Shown one piece after another: positions 3,401 to 60,061 of a DNA stretch of 64,000 nucleotides (position 1 is its first letter; each line of letters begins with the position of its first letter). The stretch lies in the NCBI GenBank assembly GCA_030765065.1, contig CM060990.1:280267341-280331340 (forward strand), given 5' to 3'. Source of the DNA: Deroplatys truncata. Taxonomy: Eukaryota > Arthropoda > Insecta > Mantodea > Mantidae. Position numbers and translations under genes: made by a program. A model generated the notes under the pieces. The model did not search any database. It was not told the origin of the DNA and saw nothing but the letters and a program-made list of their open reading frames with translations.

Positions 3401-4473
3401 CCTTAATAGATTCTTGAATTTTGCTAATTCTTCGTCGAATCACTGACAGTCTGGCAGTAACTTTATTGCCGGCATTCTGTTGTTCTGTCAAATCATGCAA
3501 TAATGCGTAGTAATAATGTAGCATGGTAGCTCGTTCCTTGGCCTTAGCTTTATCAACAAATTTGAAAAAAGACTTACAAATAAAAATCCACTGCAGAAGA
3601 TCATTGTAGCGTGAGCTATCCGCTCTGAGGGTAACGCTATCCCAAATCATACAAAACTGTTGTTGCACTTCATCATTATATAAGAGAGCATTGTTTAATT
3701 TCCAGTAACCTCTGCCAAAAACGGGTAAAGGGGTGGTTGCGGCTACCTTAACAATTAAAGCATAATGGTCACTTACTGTAGCAGCAACAATAACAGCACT
3801 CCGAATGTTAGTTCTATGAAGTGCATTGACATACAGCCTATCAAGTGGTGATGCTGAATTATGACGACAATACGTGTAACAAACCGTATTACCATGTAAC
3901 AATTCCCACGTATCAGTCAATTGCAATTCAGTACAAAGCCGTTGTAGCGCAGGAGATGGATGGTATATCCCTCGTTGATCCTTGGCATGTAACACGCAGT
4001 TAAAGTCGCCACCCAGTAACAAGCAGCTGTATCTTTGGCGGAAAAAGAATGGCATATGAGTATCTATAAAAGCTTCACGTTCACGCCGTTTGTTGGAGCC
4101 AGAAGGCAAATAAACTTTAACTACCAAGGTATCGTTGTCGATAATAATAGTTCAAAATGCGTCCACTAGGATGCAACTCTTGATGAGTTATGTTCAAGGC
4201 AGCTCTGTATATTATCGCAGTACTCCTATTGCCGTCACCCACATTACAAATATAATTATATTGAGGACCAAGGAAATTGAAATTGTCAATGTTTACCTCC
4301 TGCAAGAGCAATATATCAACATCATAACTGTAAATAAAACCTTTCAGGAGCTGTTGCTTAGTGGCACTGCGAATACCATTAATATTTAAGGTAGCATAAA
4401 TTCGTGTATAAGACATGAAAATGAAGAGGAAAATGCATAACAAGCAAAGGAGAAAGAAAGGATAGCGAATCAT
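3372..4473 (-). pseudogene. AP endonuclease domain of LINE copy 1
   Basis: Apurinic-like endonuclease domain that nicks target DNA for LINE retrotransposition. Reading on the minus strand, the N-terminal strand contains NINGIRS and DILLLQEV (the Glu of this motif is a metal ligand) in 4473-4117. The rest, in 4127-3372, has GGDFNCVL and the terminal SDHYAL motif, with the linker to reverse transcriptase behind it. The two parts lie in different frames overlapping near 4120, a frameshift. Otherwise the catalytic motifs I can see (E, GDFN, SDH) are kept. It lies directly upstream of the reverse transcriptase pieces, as in all APE-type LINEs. Confidence 0.85.
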
Positions 4474-4479
4474 GACAGG

Positions 4480-4690
4480 AAAGTGTTTTCATCTGACTCA
4501 CTCTCAAAGGATGCGCGCGTTTTCTGTTTCTTTCTGCTACCAGAGGTGAGTCCACCAGTACTACTTTCCGTGCGTCGCTTTTTTACACGGGGGTCACGGC
4601 TGCTATGGTCATCGCAGTCTAAGGATCCCCAAGCGGCGGCCTTGGTGCAGTAGCCAAACACTTGTTCCCTACCCACCCTAACCACAAGTG
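4480..4690 (-). pseudogene. C-terminal tail of LINE copy 1 ORF1 (probable)
   Basis: On the minus strand a basic, Ser/Glu-rich stretch (DPRVKKRRTESSTGG, then RKKQKTRASFESESD) ends in a stop just before the endonuclease ORF start. Position and composition fit the low-complexity tail of a LINE ORF1 protein separated from its N-terminal part by the intervening 4.86-6.3 kb. I see no domain in it; the assignment is from context. Confidence 0.5.
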
Positions 4691-4859
4691 TCATAAACAT
4701 CTTAGTGACATCCATGTGCACGTGCGCGTTGTTGACACAGTTAAAATAGCATTTAAAAGCAAACTTTGTAGCTGATTTCCATATGTACAGAATACAATCA
4801 TGCAGTTTATCTGCTTGCTTTATACACAAATGCAGTAAACAACTATGCATCGCATAATA

Positions 4860-5550
4860 ATTACTTTTATGTTACAAACGCTTTAAAATATAACTGAGGA
4901 TGACCTGAACTATTATACTACGCTACAAGAATGGAAATGCAAGTTAATATATCCGAGAGAAACTTAGAAACATGTCCTCAATAAACTATACGTTGTGGGA
5001 CTATCACGAAATAATTAAAATACATAAATATGAATTTATTTTGAAAAGAACTCTTACTCCCAAAACAAAGTCTCATTTTTGATTATGCTATTTAACCTAA
5101 AAAGTAATTTTTATAAATAAGGGTTGCATGTTTGCAGTTTTGCTTAATGTAATTATTATGTGCGCGGAGCTATGGTGAAAGTATTTTTTATTTTGTTTGT
5201 CCTGCAACAACAGAATGCTAGAAAAACCAAGCTCCAGAAGATGTAAACAAAAACATAAATATGTAAAATTAAAAAGAAGAAGAAGCAGGTGAAAAACGTA
5301 AAGCGAACGCAGGTCTTTGTATCACTCTTGGAAGATAGGTGCTTTTTTACGTAGCTTTGAAAACATGATAAATTTGCTTCACAGCAGTGTTTTTATTAAT
5401 ATAAAGCTAATATAAGAAGAGGTTGTGTATTGTTTAAGATGTAAGATTTATAAGCATGACAGCTTCTGTTTACTTAAATGAATAGCTTTATTATAAAATA
5501 TAGGATAAGTAAAAATACGGAAGGCAAAAGAAAGAAAATAAAAAAGAAAT
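4860..5550. other. AT-rich stretch without recognised content
   Basis: No coding or known repeat signature seen. It sits between the ORF1 tail and an R-family repeat copy, so it is probably part of a later insertion into LINE copy 1. Confidence 0.3.
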
Positions 5551-29044: not shown

Positions 29045-29572
29045 GCTACGGAGGGGACTCGGCACTATTGTGCCTATACCTCACAAGGGGTGTCCCCGGA
29101 AAGAAGGATGAGGTGATAGGAGACACCGGGCTGCCGGAACTAGGAGTGACGGCACAGGAATGGCAGGATACCTAAGTTTTCAGATAGAGACTTACCGTCA
29201 GACGGACAGGCAGACCGGGGAACCCACCCCGCACAGAGGGGTACAACGCTCCTCAAGGGGACTAGAATTCTCCGATAGCCAGCCGAAAGCCGAGGGACGG
29301 ACAGAATCACAAAGAGCATCCTTTTCCCCTGCCAAACTGCACCGAAACACTATCGCTGACACTTCCAACCCAGAAAGAAACCAACGGATGAAATATGAAG
29401 GGAAATGAGAATGGAGATGAAATGGAGGGACATGATATTCGGGGATGTGAGAATCCTTCCTAGCATTCGCCTGGCGACCCGGGAAAAACCCCCCGAAAAA
29501 AAACCAGGGATCAGGAAGGTCAGCCACAGGAATCGAACCCACGACCTCCCGAATGTGAGCCGCAGACGTGAT
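29045..29572 (-). mobile_element. SINE-S copy 4 (empty-site counterpart of the Maverick target)
   Basis: Minus orientation; landmarks ggaggggactcggcac, cagacggacaggcagacc, accgaaacactatcgctgac and aatcgaacccacgacctcc. It corresponds to the block B SINE that the Maverick split. Here the sequence runs unbroken through the site (aaacactatcgctgacac), which gives the pre-insertion structure. Confidence 0.82.
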
Positions 29573-29599: not shown

Positions 29600-30860
29600 G
29601 AACACGATAAAGAAAGAAAGAAAGGAAGAAGGAAAAAAGAAATTAGGGAAAGAAGTAAGGAAGGGCAAAAGGAAGGAAAGGAAGAAGGAGGGGCAGACGG
29701 GAAGTTAGGGAAATAAGGGAAGTTAGGGAACTATGGGAAGTAAAGAAAGTAAGAGAAGTAAGGAAGTAAGAGAAATAGGGTAGTAAGGGAAATAAAGGAA
29801 GTTAGGGAAGTAAGAGAAGTAAGGAAGTAAGGGAAGTAAAGGAAGTAAGGAAAGTAAGGAAAGTAAAGGAAGTTAATGAAGAAAAGGAAGTAAAGGAGTA
29901 AGAGAAGTAAGAAAGTAAGGGAAGTTAGGAAATGAGGGAAGTTAGGGAAGTAAAGGAAGTAAGGGAAGTTAGGAAGTAAGGGAAGTAAAGAAAGTAAGGG
30001 AAGTTAGGGAAGTAAGGGAAGTTAGGGAAATAAAGGAAGTTAAGGAAGTAAAGGAAGTAAAGGAGTAAGAGAAGTAAGGAAATAAGGGAAGTTAGGAAGT
30101 AAAAGAAGTTAGGGAAGTAAGGGAAGTAAAGGAAGTAAGAGAAGTTAGGGAAGTAAGAGAAGTAAGGGAAGTTAGGGAAGTAATGGAAGTAAGGGAAGTT
30201 AGGGAAGTAAGGGAAGTTAGGAAAATAAAGGAAGTTAAGGAACTAAAGGAGTAAGAGAAGTAAGGAAGTAAGGGAAGTTAGAAAGTAAGGGAAGTAAAGG
30301 AAGTAAGGGAAGTTAGGGAAGTAAGGGAAGTTAGAGAAATAAAGGAAGTTAAGGAAGTAAAGGAAGTAAGGAGAGTTAGGAAGTAAGGGAAGTTAGGGAA
30401 GTAAAGGAAGTAAGGGAAGTTAGGGAGTAAGGGAAGTAAAGAAAGTAAGGGAAGTAAGGGAAGTTAGGGAAGTAAGGAAGTTAGGGAAATAAAGGAAGTA
30501 AAGGAAATAAAGGAGTAAGAGAAGTAAGGAAGTAAGGGAAGTTAGAGAAGTAAGGATAAGTTAGGGAAGTAAGGGAAGTTAGGGAAGTAAAGGAAGTAAG
30601 AGAAGTAAGGGAAATAAGGGATGTTAGGGAAGTAGGGGAAGTTAGGGAAGTAAGGGAAGTTAGGGAAGTAAGGGAAGGTACGGAAGTAAGGGAAGTAAGG
30701 AAGTTAGGGAAGTAAGGGAAGTAAGGGAAGTAAAGGAAGTAAGAGAAGTAAGGGAAATAAGGGATGTTAGGGAAGTAGGGGAAGTTAGGGAAGTAAGGGA
30801 AGTAAGGGAAGTTAGGGAAGTAAGGAAGTTAGGGAAGTAAGGGAAGTAAGGGAAGTTTGA
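29600..30860 (+). repeat. Purine-only minisatellite, GGAAGTAA/GGAAGTTA
   Basis: About 1.25 kb made of 8-9-bp units (ggaagtaa, gggaagtta) with almost no C on this strand. In block B the same position holds only about 80 bp of aaat and gaaa repeats (59105-59190), so the array expanded in block A. Confidence 0.92.
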
Positions 30861-31439: not shown

Positions 31440-32520
31440 ACACACACTTGGACCTTTTTCCAAAAATAGATTCATTGGATTCAGGGAGTCGCTAACGTGA
31501 TTTCTGGTGAAAATACGTCATTGAATATTTAGGTGGAACACAATGCTTTCTCTACTTATTGTAGCTGCGTGGTAATGCTAAAAAAATGCTTACTTTGGAT
31601 TCAGGGTGTCTCAAAATGTATATTTCCTGTGAATCTCGTTATTCAAATTTTGGGTGGAACACAATAATTTCTCGACTTACTGTAGCTACGTAGTAGAGAA
31701 AGTAAAAATGCTTACTTTGGATTCAGGGGTCTCAAAACATGTATTTCCGATGAATCTCTTATTCAATTTTTGGGTGCAATACAATGCTTTCTCTACCTCC
31801 TGTAGCTACGTAGTAGAGAAAGCAAAAACGCTTTCTTCGGTTTTAGGGAGTCTCAAAATATGTATTTCCGATGAATCTCTTTATTGAATTTTTGGGTGAA
31901 ACACAATACTTTCTCTACTTACTGTAGCTATATAGCAGGGAAAATAAAAACGCTTTCTATGGTTCCGGGGGTCTCAAAACGTGTAATTCCGGTGAATCTC
32001 GTTATTCAATTTTTCTGTGGAACACAATACTTTCTCGACTTGCTGTAGCTACGTAGTAGAGAAAGTAAAACAATTTACTTTGGATTCAGGGGGTCTCAAA
32101 ACGTGTATATTGGGTTAATCTCGTTATTGAATTTTTGGGTGGAATACAATACTTGCTCTACTTACTGTAACTGCATAGTAGAGAAAGTAAAAGTGCTTTA
32201 TTTGGTTTCAGGGAGTCTCAAAACGTGTATTTCCGGTGAATCTCTGTATTGAATTTTTGGGTGGAATATAATAGTTTCTCTACCTCCTGTAGCTATGGAG
32301 TAGAGAAAATAAAATTGCCTTCTTTAGATTTAGGGGGTCTCAAAACGTGTATTGAATTTTGGTTGGAATACGATACCTTCTCTACCTCCTGTAGCTATGT
32401 TGTATAGAAGGTAAGAACGCTTTCTTTGGATTCAGGGTGTCTCAAAGCGTGTATTTCCGGCGAATCTCTTTATTGAATTTTTGGGTGGGATACAATACTT
32501 TTCCTACTTATCATAGGTAA
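31440..32520 (+). repeat. 121-bp minisatellite, about 9 units
   Basis: Unit landmarks: ttggattcagggagtctca, acgtgtatttccggtgaatc, tgaatttttgggtggaa, ctctacttactgtagct, acgtagtagagaaagtaaa. The gaatctc landmark recurs at 31631, 31752, 31873 and 31994, exactly 121 bp apart. Block B has only about two units (59700-59935). Confidence 0.93.
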
Positions 32521-44137: not shown

Positions 44138-44466
44138 CTACGGAGGGGACTCGGCACTGATCCACGTACTGGATATTGTGCCTAAGCCCCACAAGGGGGC
44201 GTCTCCGGGAGGAGGGATGAGGCGAGAGAACATACCGGGCACCCGGAGCCAAAAGTAGCGGCACAGGAATGGCATGGTCCTTAAGTTTTCAGATAGAGAC
44301 TCCCCGTCAGACGGACAGGAAGACCGGCGACACCACGCAGCACAGAGGGGGTCCAACGCCCCTCAAAGAAGTTAGGATACTCCCGACAGCCAGCCGAAAG
44401 CCGAGGGACGTAGAGTCACAAAAAGCATACTTTTTCCCTGCCACACTGCACCGAAACAGCCACGCC
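44138..44466 (-). mobile_element. SINE-S copy 9, left part (split by the Maverick)
   Basis: SINE-S 3' half up to the target site (accgaaacagccacgcc). It continues at 58860 after the Maverick. Copy 4 in block A is its unsplit counterpart. Confidence 0.88.
44461..44466 (+). other. Maverick target-site duplication, left (CACGCC)
   Basis: CACGCC directly before the AGTAGG end of the element. An identical CACGCC follows the other end at 58860-58865. Six bases is the duplication length of Maverick/Polinton integrases. Confidence 0.92.
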
Positions 44467-44499
44467 AGTAGGTTATTATAGAGAGAGCGAGGCCACTTT

Positions 44500-45830
44500 T
44501 TTGGGCATGTATGGGAAAGGATAGGGAAAACGAGGCTAGATGGGGCGGTTGAAGGAGGAAAATGGGTTTATATGGGAGAGATAGAGAATAGGACGACCGA
44601 TACTATGCTAGACAGGGTTGAAGGAGGGAAATACGTTTATATGGAAGAGATAGTAGAGAGGTGTTAGGCTAGATAGAGGCTGAGGAGTAGAGTATGGTTT
44701 ATATGAAAGGTATAGGAAAAACGAGGAGAGGTGTTAGGCTAGACAGAGTTGAAGGGTAGAGTATGTCTTTTATATGAGAGAGGTAGGGAACAGGAGGAGG
44801 GGTGTTAGGCTAGACAGAGGTTGAGGAGTAGAGTATGGTTTATATGAGAGATATAGGAAAACGAGGAGAGGTGTTAGACTAGACAGAGTTGAAGGGTAGA
44901 GCTTGTCTATTATATGAGACAGGTAGGGAACAGGGGTAGGTGTGTTAGGCTAGACAGAGGTTGAGGAGTAGAATAAGGTTTATATGAGATATAGGAAAAC
45001 CAGGAGAGGTATTAGGCTAAGGAGGTTGAGTATGCGTTAATAAGGAGAGACGAGAAAAGGAACAGATCCTATGCTACGATAGACAGGTGTTAAAGGTAGA
45101 ATGTGTTTTATATATGTTAGATAGGAAACCAAAGAGATACTCAGCTAGACAGGGGGCAGGAGGGGGAATACGCTTTATGAGATGTAGTGGATACGGGGAG
45201 AGGTGTTAGGCTAGACAGAGGTTGAGAGTAGAGTATGCGTTTATATGTATGAGAAGTATAGGAAGAGGGGGAGGGGTGTTAGGCTAGACGGAGGTTGAGG
45301 AGTAGAGTATAGTTTATATGAGGGGTATAGGAAAACGAGGAGAGGTGTTAGGCTAAACAGAGGTCGAGGAGTAGAGTATGCTTTATATGAGAGGTATAGG
45401 AAAACGAGGAGAGGTACGAGGTTGGGAGAGTTTGAGTATGCATTTATAAGGAGAGACGAAAAATCGGAGAGAGATCCCATGCTAGGCTAGAGAGGTGTTA
45501 AAAGTAGAATGTGCTTTATATAGGTTAGATAGAAAACCAAAGAGATACTCAGCTACACAGGGAAGGAGGCAATACGCTTTATGAGAGGCAAGGGATAGGG
45601 GAGAGGTGCTAGACTAGACAGTGGTTGAGAGTAGAGTATGGTTTATATGAGAGGTATAGGAAAACGAGGAGAGTCGGTAGGCTAGACAGGTAGTGTAGCA
45701 GTAGGAATATGGATCTATATACAGGAGAGATATGGAATAGAAGGGAGATACTAGAACTTGAAAGCGACTTTAAGCGAGAACTTCATGAAAATATGTTTCA
45801 CGTCAATGTTAGAACGCTAATTCTAGACAT
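44500..45830 (+). repeat. Maverick array 1 (about 65-71-bp units), left arm
   Basis: Units with gtgttaggctagacagagg, ttgaggagtagagtatgg, tttatatgagaggtatagg and aaaacgaggaga. Spacing of the gtgttaggctag landmark is 64-71 bp. The mirror copy is 57420-58830. Confidence 0.9.
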
Positions 45831-45849
45831 GCCCATCACGTAACCTATT

Positions 45850-46500
45850 CAGGGAAAAGGTGACCCACAAAAGGAAAAACGTGACCCATAAAGGGAAAAA
45901 GGTTCCCCAAAAACGGAAAAAGGTGACCCACAAAGGGCAAAAGGTGACCCATAAAGGGAAAAAGTGACACACAAAGGGAAAAAGGTGACCCATAAAGGAA
46001 AAAAGCCTACCCCCAAAGGTAAAAAAGTGACCCACAAAGGGAAAAAGGTGACCCACAAAGGGAAAAAGGTATCCCATAAAGGGAAAAAGGTGACCCACAA
46101 AGGCAAAAAGGTGACACACAAATGGAAAAAGGTGACCCACAAAGGGAAAAAGGTGACCAGCAAAGGGAGAAAGGTGACCAGGAAAGGGAAAAAGGTGACC
46201 CACTAAGGGGAAAAAGGTGACCAATAAAGGGAAAAAGGTGACCCATAAAGGGAAAAGGTGACCAGCAAAGGGAAAAAGGTGACCCACTCAGGGGAAAAAG
46301 GTGACCCATAAAGGGAAAAAGGTGACCCATAAAGGGAAAAAGGTGACCCATAAAGGGAAAAAGGTGACCCACAAAGGGAGAAAGGTGGCCCGCGTAGGGA
46401 AAAAGGTGACCCACTCAGGGAAAAAGGCGACCCGCTAACGGGAAAAAGGCGACCCACAAAGGGAAAAGGGTAGGGAAAAGGTCACCCTCTCACGGGAAAA
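45850..46500 (+). repeat. Maverick array 2 (21-bp units), left arm
   Basis: About 30 copies of a 21-bp unit, GGTGACCCACAAAGGG followed by five A. Because 21 is a multiple of three, frames stay open on both strands (THKGKKV repeats on +, phenylalanine/proline-rich on -); this is periodicity, not evidence of genes. The right arm has only about ten units (57190-57415). Confidence 0.92.
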
Positions 46501-46504
46501 GCTA

Positions 46505-47165
46505 ACCCACTCACACTAACAGGGAAGTAATTCAGTTAGTATCACAGGATAGGACAGATCCCGGGAAGCGGATATAGCATAGTTCCGTATGATGTTACAG
46601 GTAATTCAGATAGTATTGTGGGTATTTAGGATAATTCAAGTATCCTAGGTGTTTAGAGTCACTCATCTAGTATCACAGGAGGCTAGATTCTTGGGCAGGA
46701 CGTATCATCGTTGTATATGATTTCACAGGCAGTTCAGCTGGTATCGTATGTATTTAAGCTAATTCAACTAGTATTACAAGAGGCTAACTGCATCATAGCT
46801 GTGCATGATTTCACAGGTAATTCAGCCAGTATCGTAAGTACTTAGGTTAATTCAGCTAGTATCACAGGAGGATAGATTCCAGGGTTGGTTATAACATAGT
46901 TTCGTATTTCACAGGTAGTTCAGGTAATATCGTAAGTATTTGGGGTAATCGACATAGTTTCAGAGATATTAGTGATAATTTTGATCGGCGATTTGTATCA
47001 CAGCTATTTAAGGTAATTTAAGTTGTATCGATGCTATTTGAGTCTTTTTAACAGGAAATTCAGATAGTATCACAGGTGCTCGTGCCAATTTAGAACAGGA
47101 ATTCGTATCAGAGCTAGTTAAGGTAATTCTACATGATTAGGGTAGTATCACAGGTATTTAAGTCA
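46505..47165 (+). repeat. Maverick array 3 (degenerate units), left arm
   Basis: Loose repeats of gtaattcagctagtatcaca and ggaggatagattcc with variable spacing. The mirror copy is 56580-57170. Confidence 0.8.
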
Positions 47166-47623
47166 TAGCAGCAGCAGCCTCATTACATAACAGCTGTAGC
47201 AGAAACAGCAGCAAATTCAACAACTGTAGATTCAGCATTCTCAGCAGCAGGAAGCATCACAACAGCAAATACGACAGATGTAGTAGCAGATACAGCATCT
47301 GTAGCAACAGCAGCTACAATCATAGCAGCAATAGATCCTACAGCTACAGAAACATCAGCCGCAGCCTGTACAATAGCCGTAGCAGAAGCAAATACAACAG
47401 CTACCGTAGCAGATACAGCAGCTATACAGCAGTAGATGTAACAGATCCTACAGCTGTAGCAACATCTGCTACAATAATAGCAGTGAAAACAACCGGTTAC
47501 ATAACAGCTGTAGCAGCAGTCATCACAGCAGCTGTAACATCAAATACGAGAGCTGTAGTAGTAGATACAAGGCTGTAACATCAGCAACAAGAATAACAGC
47601 ATCAGATCAGATAGCTGTAGCAG

Positions 47624-49383
47624 CATTAGACACAGTCAGCACAATAGCTTAGCAGAAGCAAATACAGCAGCTATCGTATCAGATACAGAGACTGTACAAC
47701 GATGACTAGCCGATTCTACAGAAGCAGCGTCTGCTACAACAATAACAGCAGCAGTCGCATTACATAACAGCTGTAGATTCAGTATCCTCAGCAACAGCCA
47801 GCATCACAACAACAGCAACAGCAAATACGACAGATGTAGTAGCAAATACAGCATCTATAGCAACAGCAACTACAACGATAGCAGCAATAGATCCCAGAAC
47901 TACAGAAACAGCCTACAGCCTACACAATAGTCGTAACAGAAGCAAATACAACAGCTACCGTAGCAGATACAGAAGCTGTACAACAATAGATATAACAGAT
48001 CTTACAGCTGTAGCAACATCTGTTACAATAATAGCAGAGATAACAACCGGTTTGTTCAGCAACAGCAAATACGGCAGATGTAGTAACAGATACAGCATCT
48101 ATAGCAACAGCAGCTACAATGATAGCAGCAAAAGATCCTACAGCTACAGAAACATCAGCCGCAGCCTGCACAATAGCCGTAGCAGAAGCAAATGCAAGAG
48201 CTACCGTAGCAGATACAGCAGCTGTACAACAATAGATGTAACAGATTTTACAGCTGTAGCAACGTCTGCTACAATAATAGCAGCAAAAACAACCAGTTAC
48301 TTAACAGCTTAGGAGTAGCAGCTAATCTAACAGCTATAGATTTACACTCTTAGCAATAGCAACCATCACAGCAATGATATTCCAGCTGTAGTTTCACCCA
48401 CCACAGCAACAGCAGTCATCAAATACGAGGGCTGTAGTAGTAGATACAATGCTGTAACATCGACTACAACTATAACAGCAATAGATCCTGCAGCTGTAGC
48501 AGCATTAGACACAGTCAGCACAATAGCTGTAGCAGAAGCAAATACAGCAGCTATCGTATCAGATACAGAGACTGTACAACGATGACTAGCCGATTCTACA
48601 GAAGCAGCGTCTGCTACAACAATAACAGCAGCAGTCGCATTACATAACAGCTGTAGATTCAGTATCCTCAGCAACAGCCAGCATCACAACAACAGCAACA
48701 GCAAATACGACAGATGTAGTAGCAAATACAGCATCTATAGCAACAGGAACTACAACGATAGCAGCAATAGATCCCAGAACTACAGAAACAGCCTACAGCC
48801 TACACAATAGTCGTAACAGAAGCAAATACAACAGCTACCGTAGCAGATACAGAAGCTGTACAACAATAGATATAACAGATCTTACAGCTGTAGCAACATC
48901 TGTTACAATAATAGCAGAGATAACAACCGGTTTGTTCAGCAACAGCAAATACGGCAGATGTAGTAACAGATACAGCATCTATAGCAACAGCAGCTACAAT
49001 GATAGCAGCAATAGATCCTACAGCTACAGAAACATCAGCCGCAGCCTGCACAATAGCCGTAGCAGAAGCAAATGCAAGAGCTACCGTAGCAGATACAGCA
49101 GCTGTACAACAATGGATGTAACAGATTTTACAGCTGTAGCAACGTCTGCTACAATAATAGCAGCAAAAACAACCAGTTACTTAACAGCTTAGGAGTAGCA
49201 GCTAATCTAACAGCTATAGATTTACACTCTTAGCAATAGCAAGCATCACAGCAATGATATTCCAGCTGTAGTTTCACCCACCACAGCAACAGCAGTCATC
49301 AAATACGAGGGCTGTAGTAGTAGATACAATGCTGTAACATCGACTACAACTATAACAGCAATAGATCCTGCAGCTGTAGCAGC
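47624..49383 (+). repeat. 880-bp tandem duplication in array 4
   Basis: Two near-identical 880-bp units, 47624-48503 and 48504-49383; for example, cagcagtcgcattacataac starts at both 47752 and 48632. Only a few differences are visible (aaag/atag near 48128 and 49008). The right arm has one unit, so the event is recent and local. Confidence 0.9.
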
Positions 49384-49796
49384 ATTAGACACAGTCAGCA
49401 CAATAGCTGTAGCAGAAGCAAATACAGCAGCTTTCGTAGCAGATACCGAGCCTGTACAACAATAACTGTAACATATCCTACACCTGTAGCATCTGCTACA
49501 ACAATAACAGCAGCAGTTGCATTACATAACAACAGCAGAAACAGCAAGCATCACAACAACAGCAAATACGACAGATGTAACAGATACAACATCTATAGCA
49601 ACAGCAGCTACAATGATAGCAGCAATAGATCCTACAGCTACAGAAACATCAGCCGCAGCCTGCACAATAGCTGTAACAGAAGCAAGTACAATAGCTACTG
49701 TAGCAGATACAGCAGCTGTACGACAATAGATGTAACAGAATTTATTTAAAGGTGAGTCGGAATTGTTACACTAACATCACTTAAGATTACTCACTT

Positions 49797-49837
49797 AACA
49801 TGTTTCGGGAAACCGTTGTTCCCATCCTCAGAAGGTT
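49797..49837 (-). ncRNA. Hammerhead-ribozyme-like motif, left arm
   Basis: On the minus strand CTGAGGA (CUGANGA core) is followed by a hairpin, GGGAAC..GTTTCCC, and then GAAAC, the two conserved parts of a hammerhead core. The putative stem III is the short ACATGT. Penelope-like elements are known to carry minimal hammerheads near their ends. An unpaired U at the base of stem II and a weak stem I leave activity uncertain. Confidence 0.45.
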
Positions 49838-50210
49838 AATTCGACTGGCCCGTGTTGTTGGTGTTTCCGTTTTTTGGACTGGATCCTGTGGTGGCATCTT
49901 GTGGTGGAGAAATGTACTTCCAGAGAGGATTTGGTGGCGGCAAATCAAAATTCATTAGATGTGTGTTGTGTTTTAGAATGGTGATCTTGTCCCATGCATC
50001 TAAGTCGGCTGCAAATTTGGCTGGTTTGACTAATGTAATATTGGGTTTGATGTTGTGATTTGTGATCCAAAAATGGTGTGAAACTGCAGATTTGTCCATT
50101 TGTTTGTATTTAATACATCTCATGTGCTCCTTTAGCCTAGTTTCTAGGTTTCTTTTTGTCTTACCTATGTATACTTTATTGCAATCTGAACAATTGATTT
50201 TATAGATTCC
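49836..50210 (-). pseudogene. GIY-YIG endonuclease, C-terminal part of a Penelope-like protein
   Basis: Minus strand from 50210: GIYKINCSDCNKVYIGKTKR carries the GIY and YIG motifs 11 residues apart, with the Cys pair found in the Penelope-type subgroup. Then ETRLKEHM with the conserved Arg, SAVSHHFW with paired His, and a tail ending DATTGSSPKNGN before the stop at 49836. The reading frame is open from the GIY motif to the stop. The reverse transcriptase part that should precede it is absent. The right arm (50221-50475, +) repeats the C-terminal part from SHHFW on, with one in-frame stop (WK* instead of WKY). The domain nicks DNA for target-primed insertion. Confidence 0.85.
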
Positions 50211-50473
50211 AGCTGCAGTTCTGCAGTTTCACACCATTTTTGGATCACTAATCACAACATCAAACCCAATATTACATTAGTCAAACCAGCCAAATTTGCA
50301 GCCGAATTAGATGCATGGGAGAAGATCACCATTCTAAAACACAACACACATCTAATGAATTTTGATTTGCCGCCACCAAATCCTCTCTGGAAGTAAATTT
50401 CTCCACCACAAGATGCCACCACAGGATCCAGTCCAAAAAACGGAAACACCAACAACACGGGCCAGTCGAATTA

Positions 50474-50517
50474 ACCTTCTGAGGATGGGAACTACGGTTT
50501 CCCGAAACATGTTAAGT
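50474..50517 (+). ncRNA. Hammerhead-ribozyme-like motif, right arm
   Basis: Same motif on the plus strand: CTGAGGA at 50479-50485, stem II with a TACG loop, GAAA at 50504-50507, then CATGTTAAG. It is the inverted partner of the left-arm motif; the stem II loop differs by one base (actacgg versus acaacgg). Confidence 0.45.
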
Positions 50518-51424
50518 GAGTAAACTTAAGTGATGTTAGTGTAACAATTCCGACTCACCTTTAAATAAATTCAATACACATCACTGTTTCTAGCTTCTTT
50601 TCATTACAATATCAACGAGATGTAACAGATCTTACAGCTGTAGCAACATCTGCTACAATAATAGCAGCGACAACAACCAGTTACATAACAGCTGTAGGAG
50701 CAGCAGCTAATTCAGCAGCTATAGATGTAGCACACTTAGCAATTACAGGCATCACAGCAATGATATTCTAGCTGTAGATTCAGCAACAGCAGCCATCACG
50801 GCAGCTGTAACATCAAATATGAGAGCTGAAGTAGTAGATGCAACACTGTAACATCAGCTACAACAATAACAGTATCAGATCAGGTAGCTGTAACAGCATT
50901 AGACATAGTCAGCACAATAGCTGTAGCAGAAGCAAATACAGCAGCTATCGTAGCAGATACAGAGACTGTACAACAATAGCTGTAACAGATCCTACATCTG
51001 TAGCAGCATCTGCTATAACAATAGCAGCAGCAGTCGCATTACATAACAACTGTAGCAGCAGTTAGAGATTTAGCAGTGTTAGCAATAGCAAGCATCACAG
51101 CAATGATATTCCAGCTGTAGATTCACCTACCACAGCAACAGCAGTCATCACAACATCAACAGTAAATATGACAGATGTAGTAGCAGATACAGCATCTATA
51201 GCAACAGCAGCTACAACGAGAGCAGCAATAGATCCTGTAGCTGTAGCAGCATTAGACACAGTCAGCACAATAGCTGTAGCAAAAGCAAATACAATTGCTA
51301 TCGTAGCAGATACAGCAGCTGTACAACAATAGATGTAACAGATCCTACAGCTGTAACAACATCTGATACAATAATAGCAGCGACAACAACCGGTTACATT
51401 ACAGCTGTAGCAGCAGCAGTTAAT

Positions 51425-51715
51425 CCATTTTTGTTCAAATGTAACAGCTTTATCAGTTAAATCATTACTTCATTAAACAAGGATTGTAAGAGTAGACGTC
51501 TCTTCCCTTTATATAGGCCTGAGACTAACACTAGTATTTGCTCCTAATGACAATGCTTACCGCTTCCCCTTCCATCTTCTCCTTTCTTCACCATTTGTCT
51601 GCTATGTGCATACACACCACATGAGTAAACTTTAATTTTTTAACATTGTAGACTCGCGGAGATCATCAAAGAGATTCAATATAATTTTATTCACGTTCAC
51701 AGTAGTAACAGGGTG
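51425..51715 (-). repeat. Inner end of left arm with inverted PolB 3' end
   Basis: Inverse of 54520-54795. It includes tttgttcaaatgtaacagc, gacgtctcttccc, ccatcttctcctttcttca and gatcatcaaagagattcaat. The last part (51640-51710) is the end of the polymerase reading frame in antisense, with its stop codon. Confidence 0.85.
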
Positions 51716-51837
51716 TTAATCAGTAGGGGACATTTGGGGTGAGGGCTAATTAGTGGTGTTGGGGATTATTAGCATATGAATTGTACATTCTTGCATATTA
51801 ATCGTGCCAGAATCCGCAAATGTCACCTACTGATTAA
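51716..51837. repeat. 122-bp palindromic MITE-like unit at the arm boundary
   Basis: Starts TTAATCAGTAGGGGACATTT and ends with its near-inverse, aaatgtcacctactgattaa. It begins exactly where the inverted arm stops matching, so it either inserted there or took part in the rearrangement. Confidence 0.7.
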
Positions 51838-53185
51838 TCGCTTTTATCTCCTGAATGAAAAGAGATAGAACAATGTGATACAAACTATTCAATTCTTTGG
51901 AGTGCACCGCGTTCTTGAGATATTGTTCCAAGTTGTTTGAGATGCCTGGGTTCGAATCCTAGGAGTGATTACAAATTCATCTTCTAATTACTCAGGAACT
52001 AATTAAGATAAAGACGCCAAATAAACTTTATTACATTAATGTTATTAGTTACTTTCTTGTGAATGTCCTGGGTTTTATTCATAATTTTTAAATCACCATT
52101 ATCTCGGAAACTAAAAAGGATAGAGGGTTTGTCCAAAGCATGTTTGATAGCTGTTATAATGTGTAATTAATACTGTATATAATTTTGAATCAGTTGTCCT
52201 TAGTTCGAATCCCGATCTTTCAATGACTTCGTTAATTTTTCTGTATACTCTAGAACAAGGGTGGCGAAAACGACTTCCTTCCGCGAGTCACCAAATATGC
52301 AACACGCACGGCGTCACTCAGAAGCATGTGAAAATCAAACGGACGGTTGCAGAGAGGGAACGTGCGCCTGCGAGTCAAAATAACTCGCGAGTCACGTTTT
52401 CGCCACCTATGCTCTAGAATATATCACTTAGATTGATGCTGTAACTGTATACAGCTCGTTTAAGCATATCAAACTAATATTGTAAACAATTTTGTTTCTG
52501 GTGTTCTGGGTTCGAATACCGATAAAATGTAATTTTATTATAAACTTAATAACTCCTAAACTGCTTAAGATAAAGAAGTCAAATAAACTTTATTACGTTT
52601 ACGTCATTCTGTAGTATCTTGTGAATGCATATTTAGATACCTGACGTCCTGAGTTCGAACCTTAATTCTTTAATTTCCATTATCTCGGGAACTAAGCAAT
52701 ATAGAGGAGTGGACCAAAGCATTGTTGATAGGTTCTGTAATAGGCGATTAATGCTGTATATAATTGCCAATCAGTTGTGCTTGGTTCGAATCCCCAATTT
52801 TAATGATTTCCTTAATTTCCCTCTATACTCTAGACTATATCACTTAGATTGATAGCGTAACTGTATATAGCTTTGTTTAACATGTAAAGGTAATATAAAT
52901 TATTTTGTTCCTGGTGTTCTGGGTTCGAATACCGATTCAATGAAATTTACTTACAAATTTAATAACTCGTAATTTAATTTACATGTCAAGGTAAACGTAA
53001 ACAGAATATCTAGTCTTTAAATATCGTTATCATGACAAAAATTACTTTAAAGTACTCAGATCGAATCCTGAAGGGGTCATTTCATATATCTTCAAGGTTA
53101 TGGATCATATCAGGTTCGAGTAAAGATTAAATGGTAGATGTTGATGTGGGGGAGCTAAGTTACTAAAAATACATTTATTAAAATA
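51838..53185 (+). repeat. Interior repeat with recurring ggttcgaat words
   Basis: Loosely repeated stretch; words such as ctgggttcgaat (51948, 52508, 52918), aagtcaaataaactttatta, attatctcgg.aacta and actctaga.tatatcactt recur about 540 bp apart, giving two to three diverged units. The ggttcgaat words resemble B boxes, but no A box accompanies them, so I do not call tRNAs or SINEs. No protein. Confidence 0.6.
52256..52411. mobile_element. hAT-type MITE (156 bp)
   Basis: Inverted ends CAAGGGTGGCGAAAACG and CGTTTTCGCCACCTATG, and an 8-bp duplication, CTCTAGAA (52248-52255 and 52412-52419), the hAT signature. The inside is GC-richer, with repeated cgcgagtcac words. No coding capacity. Confidence 0.88.
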
Positions 53186-53482
53186 TTACCGGGTTTGATT
53201 TAGAAGCTTATAATCTGTGTAACTCTGGAAAAATTGCTTTTCTCGTGATTGTAGTGAAATGTAATGGTCTTTCTGTGGGAAGATGGAAAGGAAGAATTGA
53301 AAAGGGAATGAAAACATGAAATAATGTAGTATATACATACATTTAAGTAAATAAGGGGGAAAATCTTCTACATTACCTTTTAAGACTTTACTTTTAAGTA
53401 TTTTGATAATAGAGATTGTGCTAGCTTTGGTGTAATGGGTGGTGGTAGGCTTTGAATGGAACATCTGACTGAATGAGCGTGT
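53186..53482. other. Unassigned stretch before the PolB relic
   Basis: A minus-strand open frame of 92 codons shows no domain that I recognise. No repeat structure seen. Confidence 0.3.
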
Positions 53483-54596
53483 GTGAATACTTCTCTTGTT
53501 GGTGTGACAGCATATACAGGTACTTACGAGACGAGTTTAAACGTGTTTGATACTGCCAGACATCCTGTCTCTGGGCGTGACATCATAGACATCGAGCATC
53601 CTATAGAACTTCACGATCTACACAACGATCTACCTTTCCTGCCTGAGTGTATGAAACCATTGATATCATATACAAAGAAACCGATACCTCGTCTTGGACC
53701 TTGAAAGAAGTATGTAGTACTATACATGACTTAGAAGCAAGCTCTTAATCATGGGTTACGACTAAAAAATCCATCATGTGCTGCAATTCTAACAGTCACA
53801 GTGGTTAAAACCTTATGTGGAATTTAACAACGGGCTACTACAATAAGCTGCAAATGATTTCGAAAAGGACGTCTACAAGCTCTTTAACAACGTCATGTTT
53901 GGAAAAACTATGGAGAATCTGCCTGATCGTATGGATATACGACTGGTGATAAATGAGAATACTCTAGAGAAGCTGATCGCCAAGCCTACGTTTATCGATA
54001 GGACAATATATGCTGTTATTCTAGCTGTTGTATATATGTCCTCTCGACAAGCCTATATACATTGGTATGAGTGTGTTGGACATCTCCAAGACAATGTATC
54101 ACCATCATTATGATGTGCTGTTACCACATTACGGAGCAGGAAACCTGAAGCTTATGTACATGGACACTGATTCATTCATTCATCGTGTAACAACTGGAGA
54201 TGTGTACCATGGCAAGTTACGTTTACTTGAGCATCTGGATACTGCTGATTATCCTACAACTATATATGCTATTCAGCTCTAAACAAAGTGCTTGGGAAAT
54301 CTAAAGATGACGCTAATGGTAAAATCTTCCAGCGCTTTGTCGGACTACGTCCTAAGATGTATACCTTAGATATTCAAGGCTCAATGATAAAAAAGATTAA
54401 GGGTATAAAACGTAGTGCTATTAAGCAGTACATTACGTTTGATATCTATACAGACTGCCTTAAAACCTGTGAAATCATCAGAACGCCTATGAATCTAATC
54501 TTATCACGAAAGCACGTTGTTACTACTGTGCAAGTGAATAAAATTATATTGAATCCCTTTGATGATCTCCGCGATTCTACAATGTTAAAAAATTAA
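53483..54596 (+). pseudogene. Polinton-type DNA polymerase B, C-terminal part
   Basis: Relic of the protein-primed family B DNA polymerase that replicates Maverick/Polinton elements. Pieces in order: HDLHNDLPFLPECMKP (53610-53660), then KKYVVLY after a stop, then FNNVMFGKTMENL (53885-53925) with the conserved motif B pattern NxxFGK. RLVINENTLEKLIAKP follows. YIGMSVLDISKTMYH comes after a shift (54050-54090), then LMYMDTDSF (54150-54180), motif C with both catalytic Asp residues. The last piece, FQRFVGLRPKMYTLD to the stop at 54596, is open. At least four breaks; the exonuclease and N-terminal part are absent. The catalytic motifs remain, so decay was by indels and truncation. The last ~25 codons also exist inverted in the left arm. 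Confidence 0.88.
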
Positions 54597-54794
54597 AGTT
54601 TACTCATGTGCTGTGTATGCACATAGCAGACAAGTGGTGAAGAAAGGAGAAGATGGAAGGAGAAGCGGTAAGCATTGTCATTAGGAGCAAATACTAGTGT
54701 TAGTCCCAGGCCTATATATAGGGAAGAGACGTCTACCCTTACAATCCTTGTTTAATGAAGTAATGATTTAACTGATAAAGCTGCTACATTTGAA

Positions 54795-56580
54795 CAAAAA
54801 ATGGATTAACTGCTGCTGCTACAGCTGTAATGTAACCGGTTGTTGTCGCTGCTATTATTGTATCAGATGTTGCTACAGCTGTAGGATCTGTTACATCTAT
54901 TGTTGTACAGCTGCTGTATCTGCTACGATAGCAACTGTATTTGCTTTTGCTACAGCTATAGTGCTGACTGTGTCTAATGCTGCTACAGCTACAGGATCTA
55001 TTGCTGCTCTCGTTGTAGCTGCTGTTGCTATAGATGTTGTATCTGTTACATCTGTCGTATTTGCTGTTGTTGTGATGCTTGCTGTTGCTGCTACTGTTAT
55101 GTAATGCAACTGCTGCTGTTATTGTTGTAGCAGATGCTACAGATGTAGGATATGTTACAGTTATTGTTGTACAGGCTCGGTATCTGCTACGAAGGCTGCT
55201 GTATTTGCTTCTGCTACAGCTATTGTGCTGACTGTGTCTAATGCTGCTACAGCTGCAGGATCTATTGCTGTTATAGTTGTAGTCGATGTTACAGCATTGT
55301 ATCTACTACTACAGCTCTCGTATTTGATGACTGCTGTTGCTGTGGTGGGTGAAACTACAGCTGGAATATCATTGCTGTGATGCTTGCTATTGCTAAGAGT
55401 GCTAAATCTATAGCTGTTAGATTAGCTGCTGCTCCTACAGCTGTTATGTAACTGGTTGTTGTTGCTGCTATTATTGTAGCAGAAGTTGCTACAGCTGTAA
55501 GATCTGTTACATCTATTGTTGTACAGCTGCTGTATCTGCTACGGTAGCTCTTGTATTTGCTTCTGCTACGGCTATTGTGCAGGCTGCGGCTGATGTTTCT
55601 GTAGCTGTAGGATCTATTGCTGCTATCATTGTAGCAGCTGTTGCTATAGATGCTGTATCTGTTACTACATCTGTCGTATTTGCTGTTGCTGAACAAACCG
55701 GTTGTTATCTCTGCTATTATTGTAACAGATGTTGCTACAGCTGAAAGATCTGTTATATCTATTGTTGTACAGCTTCTGTATCTGCTACGGTAGCTGTTGT
55801 ATTTGCTTCTGTTACGGCTATTGTGTAGGCTGTAGGCTGTTTCTGTAGTTCTGGGATCTATTGCTGCTATCGTTGTAGTTGCTGTTGCTATAGATGCTGT
55901 ATTTGCTACTACATCTGTCGTATTTGCTGTTGCTCTTGTTGTGATGCTTGCTGTTGCTGAGGATACTGAATCTACAGCTGTTATATAATGCGACTGCTGC
56001 TGTTATTGTTGTAGCAGACGCTGCTTCTGTAGAATCGGCTAGTCATCGTTGTACAGTCTCTGTATCTGATACGATAGCTGCTGTATTTGCTTCTGCTACA
56101 GCTATTGTGCTGACTGTGTCTAATGCTGCTACAGCTATCTGATCTGATGCTGTTATTTTTGTAGCTGATGTTACAGCCTTGTATCTACTACTACAGCTCT
56201 CGTATTTGATGTTACAGCTGCTGTGATGACTGCTGCTGCTACAGCTGTTATGCAACCGGTTGTTGTCACTGCTATTATTGTAGCAGATGTTGCTACAGCT
56301 GTAGGATCTGTTACATCTATTGCTGTATAGCTGCTGTATCTGCTACGGTAGCTGTTGTATTTGCTTCTGCTACGGCTATTGTACAGGCTGCGGCTGATGT
56401 TTCTGTAGCTGTAGGATCTATTGCTGCTATGATTGTAGCTGCTGTTGCTACAGATGCTGTATCTGCTACTACATCTGTCGTATTTGCTGTTGTGATGCTT
56501 CCTGTTGCTGAGGATGCTGAATGTATAGTTGTTGGATTTGCTGCTGTTTCTGCTACAGCTGTTATGTAATGAGGCTGCTG
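54795..56580 (-). repeat. Maverick array 4, right arm
   Basis: Inverse of the left-arm tract (tgctgctacagctgt words). About 1.8 kb against 4.3 kb on the left. Confidence 0.9.
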
Positions 56581-57170
56581 CTATGACTTAAATACCTGTG
56601 ATACTACCCTAATCATGTAATGTGATACTACTGAATTTCCTGTTAAAAAGACTCAAATATCAGCGATACAACTTAAATTGCCTTAAATAGCTGTGATACA
56701 AATCGCCGATCAAAATTATCACTAATATCTCTGAAACTATGTCGATTACCCCAAATACTTACGATATTACCTGAACTACCTGTGAAATACGCAACTATGT
56801 TATAACCGACACTGGAATCTGTCCTCCTGTGATACTAGTTGAATTAACCTAAGTACCTACGATACTGGCTGAATTACCTGTGAAATCATGCACAGCTATA
56901 ATGCAGTTAGCCTCTTGTAATACTAGTTGAATTAGCTTAAATGCCCACTATACTAGCTGAATTGCCTGTGAAATCATATACAACGATGACACGTCCTGCC
57001 CCAAGAATCTAGCCTCCTGTGATACTAGATGAGTGACTCTAAACACCTATGATACTTGAATTATCCTAAATACCCACAATACTATCTGAATTACCTGTAA
57101 CATCATACGGAACTATGCCATATCCGCTTCCCGGGATCTGTCTTGCCCTGTGATACTAACTGAATTACTT
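56580..57170 (-). repeat. Maverick array 3, right arm
   Basis: Inverse of 46505-47165, with words such as tgtgatactagttgaatta and acctgtgaaatcat. Confidence 0.8.
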
Positions 57171-57189
57171 ACGTGTTAGAGTGAGTGGT

Positions 57190-57415
57190 TTAGCTTTTCC
57201 CGTGAATGGGTCACCTTTTCCCTACCCTTTTCCCTTTGTGGGTCACCTTTTTCCCCTGAGCGGGTCACCTTCTTCCCTGAGTGGGTCACCTTTTTCCCTT
57301 TATGGGTCACCTTTCTCCCTTTGTGGGTCACCTTTTTCCGTTTGTGGGTCACCTTTTTCCCTTTATGGGTCACCTTTTTCCTTTTGTGGGTCACCTTTTC
57401 CCTGAATAGGTTACG
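57190..57415 (-). repeat. Maverick array 2, right arm
   Basis: About ten 21-bp units (ccctttgtgggtcacctt). Inverse of 45850-46500, with a third of its units. Confidence 0.92.
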
Positions 57416-57419
57416 TGAT

Positions 57420-58830
57420 GGACATGCCTAGAATTAGCGTTCTAACATTGACGTGAAACATATTTTCATGAAGTTCTCGCTTAAAGTCGCTTTCAAGGTC
57501 TAGTATCTCCCTCCTATTCCATATCTCTCCTGTATATAAGTCCATATTCCTACTGCTACACTTCCTGTCTAGCCTACCGACTCTCCTCGTTTTCCTATAC
57601 CTCTCATATAAGCCATACTCTACTCTCAACCACTGTCTAGTCTAGCACCACTCCCCGTATCCCCTGCCTCTCATAAAGCGTATTCCCTCCTTCCCTGTCT
57701 AGCTGAGTATCTCTTTGGTTTCCTATCTAACCTATATAAAGCTCATTCTACCTTTAACACCTGTCTATCCTAGCATAGGATCTCTCTCCGTTTTTTCGTC
57801 TCTCCTTATAAACGCATATTCAAACTCTCCCAACCTAGTACCTCTCCTCGTTTTCCTATACCTCTCATATAAAGCATACTCTACTCCTCGACCTCTGTTT
57901 AGCCTAACACCTCTCCTCGTTTTCCTATACCCCTCATATAAACTATACTCTACACCCCAACCTCTGTCTAGGCTAACACCCATCCTCCTGTTCCTATACT
58001 TCTCATACATATAAACGCATACTCTACTCTCAACCTCTGTCTAGCTTAACACCTCTCCCCGTATCCACTACTTCTCATAAAGCGTATTCCCCCTCCTGCC
58101 CCCTGTCTAGCTGAGTATCTCTTTGGTTTCCTATCTAACATATATAAAACACATTCTACCTTTAACACCTGTCTATCGTAGCATAGGATCTGTTCCTTTT
58201 CTCGTCTCTCCTTATAAACGCATACTCAACCTCCTTAGCCTAATACCTCTCCTGGTTTTCCTATATCTCATATAAACCATACTCTACTCCTCAACCTCTG
58301 TCTAGCCTAACACACCTACCCCTGTTCCCTACCTGTCTCATATAAAAGATAAGCTCTACCCTTCAACTCTGTCTAGCCTAACACCTCTCCTCCTGTTCCC
58401 TACCTCTCTCATATAAAAGACATACTCTACCCTTCAACTCTGTCTAGTCTAACACATCTCCTCGTTTTCCTATATCTCTCATATAAACCATACTCTACTC
58501 CTCAACCTCTGTCTAGCCTAACACCCCTCCTCCTGTTCCCTATCTCTCTCATATAAAAGACATACTCTACCCTTCAACTCTGTCTAGCCTAACACCTCTC
58601 CTCGTTTTTCCTATACCTTTCATATAAACCATACTCTACTCCTCAGCCTCTATCTAGCCAAACACCTCTCTACTATCTCTTCCATATAAACGTATTTCCC
58701 TCCTTCAACCCTGTCTAGCATAGTATCGGTCGTCGTATTCCCTATCTCTCCCATATAAACCAATTTTCCTCCTTGAACCGCCCCATCTAGCCTCGTTTTC
58801 CCTATCCTTTCCCATACATGCCCAAAAAAG
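57420..58830 (-). repeat. Maverick array 1, right arm
   Basis: Inverse of 44500-45830, of almost equal length and very similar unit by unit. The outermost array therefore looks best preserved or most recently homogenised. Confidence 0.9.
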
Positions 58831-58859
58831 TGGCCTCGCGCTCTCTATAATAACCTGCT

Positions 58860-58865
58860 CACGCC
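58860..58865 (+). other. Maverick target-site duplication, right (CACGCC)
   Basis: Second copy of the 6-bp duplication directly after the CCTGCT end; SINE sequence (gacacttccaaccctgaa) resumes at once. Confidence 0.92.
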
Positions 58866-59104: not shown

Positions 59105-59190
59105 GAACACAATAAATAAATAAATAAATAAATAAATAAAGAAGGAAAGAAAGAATGAAAGAAAGAAAGAAAGAAAGAAAAGGGAAAAAA
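59105..59190 (+). repeat. AAAT/GAAA microsatellite
   Basis: Runs of aaat and then gaaa units. It lies where block A has its 1.25-kb purine array. Confidence 0.9.
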
Positions 59191-59319
59191 TTAAAGAAAG
59201 AAAAACAATAGCTATTCGCAGTTGAGAGAAGTATAAAGTATTTGAAAATTCAAACTAATACCAAAAAATATTTCGGAATAAGTAAAACATAAAAGTTATT
59301 TGACATAAAAGAACTATGT

Positions 59320-59690
59320 TATTTGATATAAATTTTGTGACTTAACAAGATCTACAGTTTTTGTGCAGTAAGATTTTGTCTCAATCTTACGATTTACTAA
59401 TTATCAAAAATTATTCTCAATAAAGACTAATTTACGGACTATTCCTAGAAAATAAGATATATACATTTTATTTAGCATAAAAGTAGCTTAAACATATGGA
59501 TTTTAATCAAAATCCTTAGAGCCATTTTTGAAAGAATAAAAAATTTCGAAAAATTCCCAATGTAAAGGGTAGTCTGGAGTGAGGGATTTTCTTTAAAATC
59601 TCAGTGTCGCATTCTTGGTAGAAGTTGAACTTAAACACTAAGTTCGGTTTTTAGCCAACTTTTTGCTTTTGAGTTATGCTGTTCGTGGAT
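59320..59690 (+). repeat. R-family repeat, copy 5
   Basis: Counterpart of 31030-31425: tttgatataaattttgtg, tgcagtaagattttgtc, agccatttttgaaagaat, ttttgagttatgctgttc. Confidence 0.7.
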
Positions 59691-59699
59691 ACACACACA

Positions 59700-59935
59700 C
59701 ACTTGGATGTTTTTCTAAAAATAAATTCATTGGATTCAGGGAGTCACAAAACGTGATTTCTGGTGAAATTACGACATTGAATTTTTAGGTAGAACACAAT
59801 ACTTTCTCTACTTACTGTAGCTACATAGTAGAGAAAGTAAAAATGCTTTCTTTGGATTCAGGGAGTTTCGAAACGTGTATTTTCAGTGAACCTCGTTATT
59901 CACTTTTTTGGTGGAATACAATACTTTCCCTACTT
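59700..59935 (+). repeat. 121-bp minisatellite, about 2 units
   Basis: Same unit as 31440-32520 (ttggattcagggagt, actttctctacttactg) but only about two copies. Confidence 0.88.
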
Positions 59936-60061
59936 GTTATAGATAAATAGTAGAGACAGTAAAATGAAGAGTTGTGGTATTGATAAGCGATTGTTTGTCG
60001 TTACGGCATCTTGCATGCAACCAAATAGGGAAACGTGTAACTTAGACTGCAACTTGAAATA

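What the first reader, a model, noticed from the sequence alone, without database searches (positions are those of the whole stretch)
44467..58859. Maverick/Polinton derivative whose terminal inverted repeats are 4.3-7.2 kb of tandem arrays
Seen: AG ends, perfect 6-bp CACGCC duplication, mirror-ordered arms of four unrelated arrays, and a PolB relic in the middle. Known: Polintons have 6-bp duplications and arms of some hundred bases, replicated by a protein-primed PolB. Inferred: arms that make up about 80% of the element and have swallowed coding space may be a distinct Polinton lineage, or a non-autonomous form that keeps only what its helper needs.
Basis: partly seen in the sequence, partly recalled or inferred. 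Interest (0 to 1): 0.88.

Follow-up and report, generated by a model that had tools for sequence, protein, structure and literature searches.

The report
Half-eroded giant palindromic Polinton-derived element
The window holds one copy of a widespread family of virus-like jumping DNA that has shrunk to a single DNA-copying enzyme and turned itself into a giant mirror image, a shape not known to us for this kind of element and one that may record how it copies itself.

Summary
Window 44467-58859 starts AG, ends CT, has a perfect CACGCC duplication and mirror-ordered repeat arms (96.9% identical over 4268 aligned bases). It is a real insertion: a paralogous empty site lies in the same window, near 29350. 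The 4.29-Gb host genome shows at least 62 loci of the family; 9 of 10 copies with both ends have perfect 6-bp duplications. Eight of those ten are fold-backs whose two arms carry the same side of the element, with at least part of PolB in each. Twelve of 34 loci keep two divergent halves, seven of them 199-221 bp apart around a conserved hairpin. So the element is a giant palindrome, and the window copy lost part of one arm, from the central hairpin outward. It belongs to a PolB-deleted subfamily (18 of 34 loci), hence non-autonomous. Probes from one ordinary Polinton found no integrase or capsid gene in the ten copies, but a 25-27-residue relic of its packaging ATPase in the arms. One relative's PolB is predicted to fold like phi29 polymerase. 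Best mechanism: protein-primed copying with snap-back hairpins that keep the arms alike, and integrase in trans from ordinary Polintons. Anatomy strong, mechanism inferred.

The parts
44461..44466 (.). target-site duplication CACGCC, left
44467..44655 (+). left terminal region, AGTAGGTTATTATAGAGAGAGCG..., shared by the ten copies compared
44656..45689 (+). 69-bp tandem array, left arm
45748..45840 (+). relic of Polinton packaging ATPase N-terminal region (ELESDFKRELHENMFHVNVRTLIL), just outside the 21-bp array
45851..46514 (+). 21-bp tandem array, left arm
46527..46941 (+). 125-bp-class diverged array, left arm (mirror at about 56753-57167)
   Evidence: not reported by TRF
47170..51425 (+). 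CAG-rich 246-bp-class arrays, left arm (with an 880-bp duplication and a nested insertion)
49738..50572 (-). nested inverted pair (353 bp arms) with GIY-YIG open frame, Penelope-like; left arm only
51428..51715 (-). inner end of left arm; carries an inverted copy of the PolB 3' end
51716..51727 (.). 12-bp relic of the deleted inner end of the left arm (left stem of the central hairpin)
51728..51838 (.). central loop and right stem, conserved palindrome centre
51847..53593 (+). non-coding region with 416-bp-class repeats between centre and PolB
53588..54596 (+). PolB relic: 3' part only; about 2.8 kb before it lost in the shared subfamily-B deletion; frames broken
54513..58859 (-). right arm (mirror of the left), from the PolB 3' end to the right terminus
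57224..57403 (-). 21-bp tandem array, right arm
57420..57509 (-). ATPase N-terminal relic, right arm
57840..58670 (-). 69-bp tandem array, right arm
58860..58865 (.). target-site duplication CACGCC, right
29340..29360 (+). paralogous empty site: the flanks of the element run on without it (83-84% identity either side)

Best explanation
SHOWN: the window element is one copy of a large family of Polinton-derived mobile elements whose basic form is a giant palindrome: terminus - 69-bp array - ATPase relic - 21-bp array - PolB (reading outward) - 416-bp repeats - central hairpin - the same in mirror image. The window copy belongs to subfamily B (PolB internally deleted, extra CAG-rich arrays) and later lost the inner part of its left arm from the hairpin outward. 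INFERRED: an intact relative supplies a protein-primed PolB that copies the element as linear DNA from its ends by strand displacement; the displaced palindromic strand snaps back into a hairpin several kb long. Repair of mismatches in that hairpin, or gene conversion between the arms, keeps the arms alike, so a change in one arm spreads to the other. Cleavage near the hairpin tip starts one-sided deletions. Integration (AG/CT ends, 6-bp duplication) is done by the rve integrase of ordinary Polintons of the same genome, in trans.
Against: No extrachromosomal or hairpin form was seen; genome sequence alone cannot show it. Arm likeness could come from gene conversion in the chromosome. In copy C84 long blocks with 0 mismatches alternate with blocks of up to 6%, and in the PolB middle C84_R is nearer to another copy (97.9%) than to its own other arm (95.05%): homogenisation is patchy, not a full re-copy each round. 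In the 190-bp terminal region each of the window's arms is nearer to some other copies (up to 98.4%) than to its partner (96.8%), and C13 and C16b are not sisters there; in the ATPase-relic region C2 and C16b are not. Several sister pairs have weak support (0.64-0.86). Copies C6 and C7 lost the centre, so they do not show it. C13 has no matching duplication. The helper integrase is not shown: the ends of the two ordinary Polintons read were not found.
Confidence: 0.6

Rival explanations
1. Copy-back genomes made afresh: each fold-back copy arose on its own when a polymerase copying from the right end switched strand and returned, as in defective-interfering genomes; no palindromic master exists.
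For: Outer switch points differ from copy to copy; arms of one copy are mostly sisters.
Against: The inner point is the same conserved hairpin edge in W, C16b, C2, C1a, C1b, 7 loci share the same 199-221-bp spacing and like sequence, and the window keeps a stem relic of the missing arm: a shared ancestral centre is simpler.
Confidence: 0.15
2. Arm extension by chromosomal gene conversion or break repair, as proposed for Galileo: an ordinary element with short terminal repeats whose left end was overwritten by longer and longer copies of the right end; no special replication needed.
For: Discussed for Galileo, whose authors also cite inverted-repeat expansion in Polintons (PMC3573991, passages). 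Patchy identity in C84. Copy C1b has a left terminal repeat of only about 450 bp.
Against: Does not predict a shared hairpin centre with both arms reaching it, nor the left-stem relic in the window. The nearest relative of C1b found (C16:273.59, 98%) still has the central loop, so C1b itself looks like a deletion product.
Confidence: 0.2
3. Assembly artefact: inverted duplication of one arm by read or assembly error.
For: Palindromes are a known weak point of assemblies (recalled).
Against: Arms differ by 0.2-3.6% plus indels in eight copies, outer duplications are perfect in 9 of 10, the structure recurs on many contigs, and an empty site exists.
Confidence: 0.03
4. Not Polinton-derived: another foldback transposon (P or Mutator type) that captured a PolB fragment.
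For: Foldback shape is known from those superfamilies; a Mutator-like transposase is found inside copy C13.
Against: That transposase is an insertion at the centre of one copy, flanked by TTAA; ends are AG/CT with 6-bp duplications; PolB and an ATPase relic are in the arms of the family.
Confidence: 0.02

Closest known systems
Polinton / Maverick (vertebrate Mavericks, PMC8097293, passages)
   Same: AG(T) ends, 6-bp duplication, protein-primed-type PolB; ATPase relic
   Different: Intact vertebrate Mavericks have seven or eight conserved genes and terminal repeats of 46-1447 bp; here no integrase or capsid was found, arms reach 9.2 kb, and PolB lies in both arms
Galileo (P superfamily), Foldback, Tm1 (Mutator/Foldback) (PMC3573991 passages; PMC3169594 search listing)
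   Same: long inverted arms with internal tandem arrays, small or no middle, great size variation
   Different: transposase, target duplication and ends are of other superfamilies; no PolB; a conserved central hairpin is not known to us there
Bidnaviridae and adintoviruses (PMC4061559 passages)
   Same: PolB of the same protein-primed kind; the top structural matches of a relative's PolB are densovirus, adintovirus and MELD-virus polymerases
   Different: those are viruses with capsid genes; none was found in the present element
Linear protein-primed plasmids and transpovirons (PMC11071308 passages)
   Same: replication gene without structural module
   Different: extrachromosomal; here integrated with target duplications. 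Palindromic hairpin derivatives of yeast pGKL plasmids are recalled only

Membership tests
Polinton/Maverick | 5'-AG...CT-3' ends | tested here: met
   18 of 20 ends of ten copies; first base changed at one end of C6, second base at one end of C13
Polinton/Maverick | 6-bp target-site duplication | tested here: met
   9 of 10 copies with both ends
[quoted passage not shown]
   Pfam DNA_pol_B_2 in frames of C84 and C16b, not in the other four PolB pieces of C84, C7 and C1b scanned; about 40% identical to PolB of an ordinary Polinton; model of relative P0011 matches phi29 polymerase. Window copy: relic only
Polinton/Maverick | rve integrase gene | tested here: not met
   no tblastn hit in ten copies of the rve-matching frame of L034 nor of its neighbour frame, which has no Pfam match itself
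Polinton/Maverick | packaging ATPase gene | tested here: not met
   only a 25-27-residue relic
Polinton/Maverick | major and minor capsid genes | tested here: inconclusive
   no hit in ten copies with frames of one ordinary Polinton as probes; not all frames of 110 aa or more in the copies were scanned
Foldback-type architecture | long inverted arms with internal tandem repeats making up most of the element | tested here: met
Adintovirus / bidnavirus | capsid genes with PolB | tested here: inconclusive
   no capsid hit with the probes used

The most novel reading that the evidence does not exclude
A PolB-only palindromic replicon: a capsid-less offshoot of Polintons that lives as a linear protein-primed element replicating through giant snap-back hairpins, borrows an integrase to enter the chromosome, and may be widespread in arthropods (its PolB has thousands of relatives, whose surroundings were not seen). 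It would be a new class between self-synthesising transposons and linear plasmids, with its chromosomal copies as fossils of the replicating form.
Probability: 0.3. Interest if true: 0.85.

Novelty: new variant of a known kind. Interest (0 to 1): 0.64.

Why it matters
How Polintons replicate has been argued largely from their polymerase. A family whose copies carry mirror-image arms that evolve together, with deletions starting at a hairpin tip, is natural evidence on the replication intermediate and makes it testable by looking for linear, protein-capped or snap-back DNA. It also suggests that a Polinton can shed integrase and capsid genes and still multiply, and brings the foldback shape, known from P and Mutator transposons, to a third and unrelated group.

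Tried and rejected
Rejected: chance; artefact; capture of PolB by a Mutator-type foldback (the transposase is a nested insertion in one copy). Tried without result: tRNA and Rfam scans (nothing); Pfam on three PolB pieces of the window (none); IMG/VR for relatives of the PolB (16 stretches matched a pattern, none confirmed); PDB by sequence (one match at E 0.58); terminal repeats of two ordinary Polintons, L034/L035 and L051/L052 (none found, so their ends could not be compared). The N-terminal part of the PolB model, where terminal-protein and vOTU domains are expected from PMC11071308, was not folded apart; the rows test residues 206-997 only. Paper searches for a foldback or palindromic Polinton: searches gave no such title or abstract start in the rows listed (listings capped); some searches looked for mechanism parallels and were seen as listings only. 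Dropped rows: copy C16s was cut at its midpoint (78.6%), which is not its centre, and is left out of the arm identities; C1b (444 bp aligned, 97.3%) is also left out of the range. The PolB protein search of the whole genome did not complete, so PolB copies were not counted directly.
Full report
OBSERVATION. The element at 44467-58859 is as described: AGTAGG...CCTGCT ends, CACGCC on both sides, arms of 7249 and 4347 bp that align over 4268 bp at 96.86%, four classes of tandem array in mirror order. The terminal motif is found only at the two ends in the window, and never in 100 shuffles. The flanks of the element are paralogous to 26.7-33.0 kb of the same window (80-86% identity in pieces); there the two flanks run on without the element at about 29350. 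That is an empty site, independent of the duplication.

OTHER COPIES. The terminal 194 bp gave 40 scored places of 3919 candidates, which pair into 10 elements of 2.2-18.5 kb and leave 20 single ends. The non-coding region next to PolB gave 47 matches at 34 loci, 40 candidates scored of 6437. The two lists overlap at 2 loci, so 30 + 34 - 2 = at least 62 loci exist; both lists are capped. Of the 10 paired elements, 9 have perfect 6-bp duplications (CACGCC, CATATG, CGCATG, GTGCTA, GTCATA, GACGGC, TATGTC, GTTATA, TAGAGA); C13 does not.

ANATOMY. Using the copy C1b (C1:59146804-59156709, one PolB gene) as a ruler, eight of the other nine copies have the same side of the element, the one downstream of PolB, at both ends; the 2.2-kb copy C16s has one arm too short to tell. 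In C84 the arms are 9.2 kb and meet at a loop of about 0.1 kb; PolB lies in both, reading outward. C13 is alike, with a Mutator-like transposase (PF20700) inserted at the centre between TTAA sites. The others are asymmetric: one arm stops early. The outer junctions, in ruler bases, are about 5918, 5758, 1657 and 959 against the centre for W, C16b, C2 and C1a, and 3595/1984 and 4177/about 1283 for C6 and C7, which lost the centre.

THE CENTRE. The stem GCGATTAATCAGTAG...CTACTGATTAATCGC, whole or in part, and a loop with two CTAATTAG-like boxes behind G-rich runs are shared by W, C84, C13, C2, C1a and C16b and by the centres fetched from nine further loci, of which C4_81, C12_165 and C6_47 have only one complete stem side. 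Of 34 loci, 12 keep two halves of the non-coding region, in all 12 divergent, and 7 of the 12 have 199-221 bp between them; the other 22 show one half. In the window, the left arm stops inside the PolB 3' end at 51715 and is followed by TTAATCAGTAGG (51716-51727), the inner tip of the missing arm, then the loop. So the window copy most likely descends from a full palindrome.

TWO SUBFAMILIES. W, C13 and C1a share an internal PolB deletion (ruler bases about 2138-4980) and 3-4 kb of CAG-rich arrays; the deletion is in both arms in C13 and C1a, the left arm of W does not reach it. In the 34-locus search, matches that end at query base 1539 (ruler 2138) mark this subfamily: 18 loci; the other 16 run on. 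A form without most of PolB has thus multiplied, so the polymerase must act in trans on it, or it is copied by other means.

POLINTON ANCESTRY. Ends and duplication fit. PolB frames of C84 and C16b match DNA_pol_B_2, and frames of C84, C1b and C16b match endonuclease VII; the family's PolB is about 40% identical to that of an ordinary Polinton in this genome, L034/L035, which also has an rve frame, a Pox_A32-type ATPase and a double-jelly-roll capsid frame. Probing the ten copies with 13 frames of that Polinton gave PolB hits, no hit for the rve, capsid or other frames, and one surprise: the first part of the ATPase matches 25-27 residues in the arms, ending just before the glycine-rich stretch that I take, from memory, to be the ATP-binding loop, and next to the 21-bp array. 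Eight of eight ATPase frames from other loci hit the same place (best E 2e-6 to 2e-3); the reversed sequences gave none. None of 38 Pox_A32 places is within 30 kb of a listed copy.

ARMS EVOLVE TOGETHER. Whole-arm identities are 96.4-99.8% in eight copies. In region trees the two arms of a copy are sisters in 5 of 5 (PolB 3'), 3 of 3 (PolB middle), 4 of 4 (non-coding), 6 of 8 (ATPase-relic region), 8 of 10 (190-bp terminus) and 6 of 8 cases (136-bp middle piece; C2 and C6 tie there); several of these have weak support. Against: in the terminal region each of the window's arms is nearer to some other copies (up to 98.4%) than to its partner (96.8%), and C84 is a patchwork of blocks with 0 mismatches and blocks of up to 6%, one of its arms being nearer to C16b there. 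Part of the mismatch in array stretches may be misalignment. A full re-copying of one arm in each round is therefore not shown; piecewise conversion fits better.

MECHANISM. From passages read: polintoviruses have been suggested to replicate through a single-stranded, protein-primed route (PMC4061559), and most eukaryotic PolBs of this kind carry their terminal protein (PMC11071308). A palindrome copied by strand displacement must give strands that can snap back. That explains together-evolving arms by mismatch repair, and one-sided deletions that begin at the hairpin tip (centre-break repair of palindromes is recalled; one search was seen as a listing). Galileo offers the plainer rival, conversion in the chromosome (PMC3573991). 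Integration in trans by ordinary Polintons is inferred from the ends and duplications.

VERDICT. Intact vertebrate Mavericks have terminal repeats of 46-1447 bp (PMC8097293, passages). The searches listed no palindromic or PolB-only Polinton family. I call it a new variant of a known kind.

Noticed in passing
window 49738-50572: Nested inverted pair (353 bp, 98%) with an open frame matching GIY-YIG (E 3e-6), probably a Penelope-like element, in the left arm only.
   Followed up: partly
window 52257-52417: Small palindromic insertion (GGGTGGCGAAAACG...CGTTTTCGCCACC) flanked by CTCTAGAA, read by eye; looks like a hAT-type miniature element.
   Followed up: no
window 29699-30856: 130-copy array of GGGAAGTAA (9 bp) just beside the empty site; TRF reports no such array in the paralogous flank at 59128-59320.
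   Followed up: no
window 26.7-33.0 kb and 42.2-61.7 kb: Paralogous blocks at 80-86% identity, including a 122-bp repeat family (31471-32353 and 59726-59964).
   Followed up: partly
L009/L010 centre: Mutator-like (PF20700) transposase frames inserted at the palindrome centre between TTAA sites, about 3 kb; the element C13 lacks a matching outer duplication.
   Followed up: partly
L013 (C16:514458049-514460241): A 2.2-kb miniature with the same ends and duplication GTTATA and no PolB hit.
   Followed up: partly
L035:415-1062: Ordinary Polinton with a frame that matches a phospholipase A2-like domain (E 2e-12) and, below cut-off, adenovirus protein X.
   Followed up: no
L011: Patches of up to 6% divergence within otherwise identical arms of C84.
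   Followed up: partly
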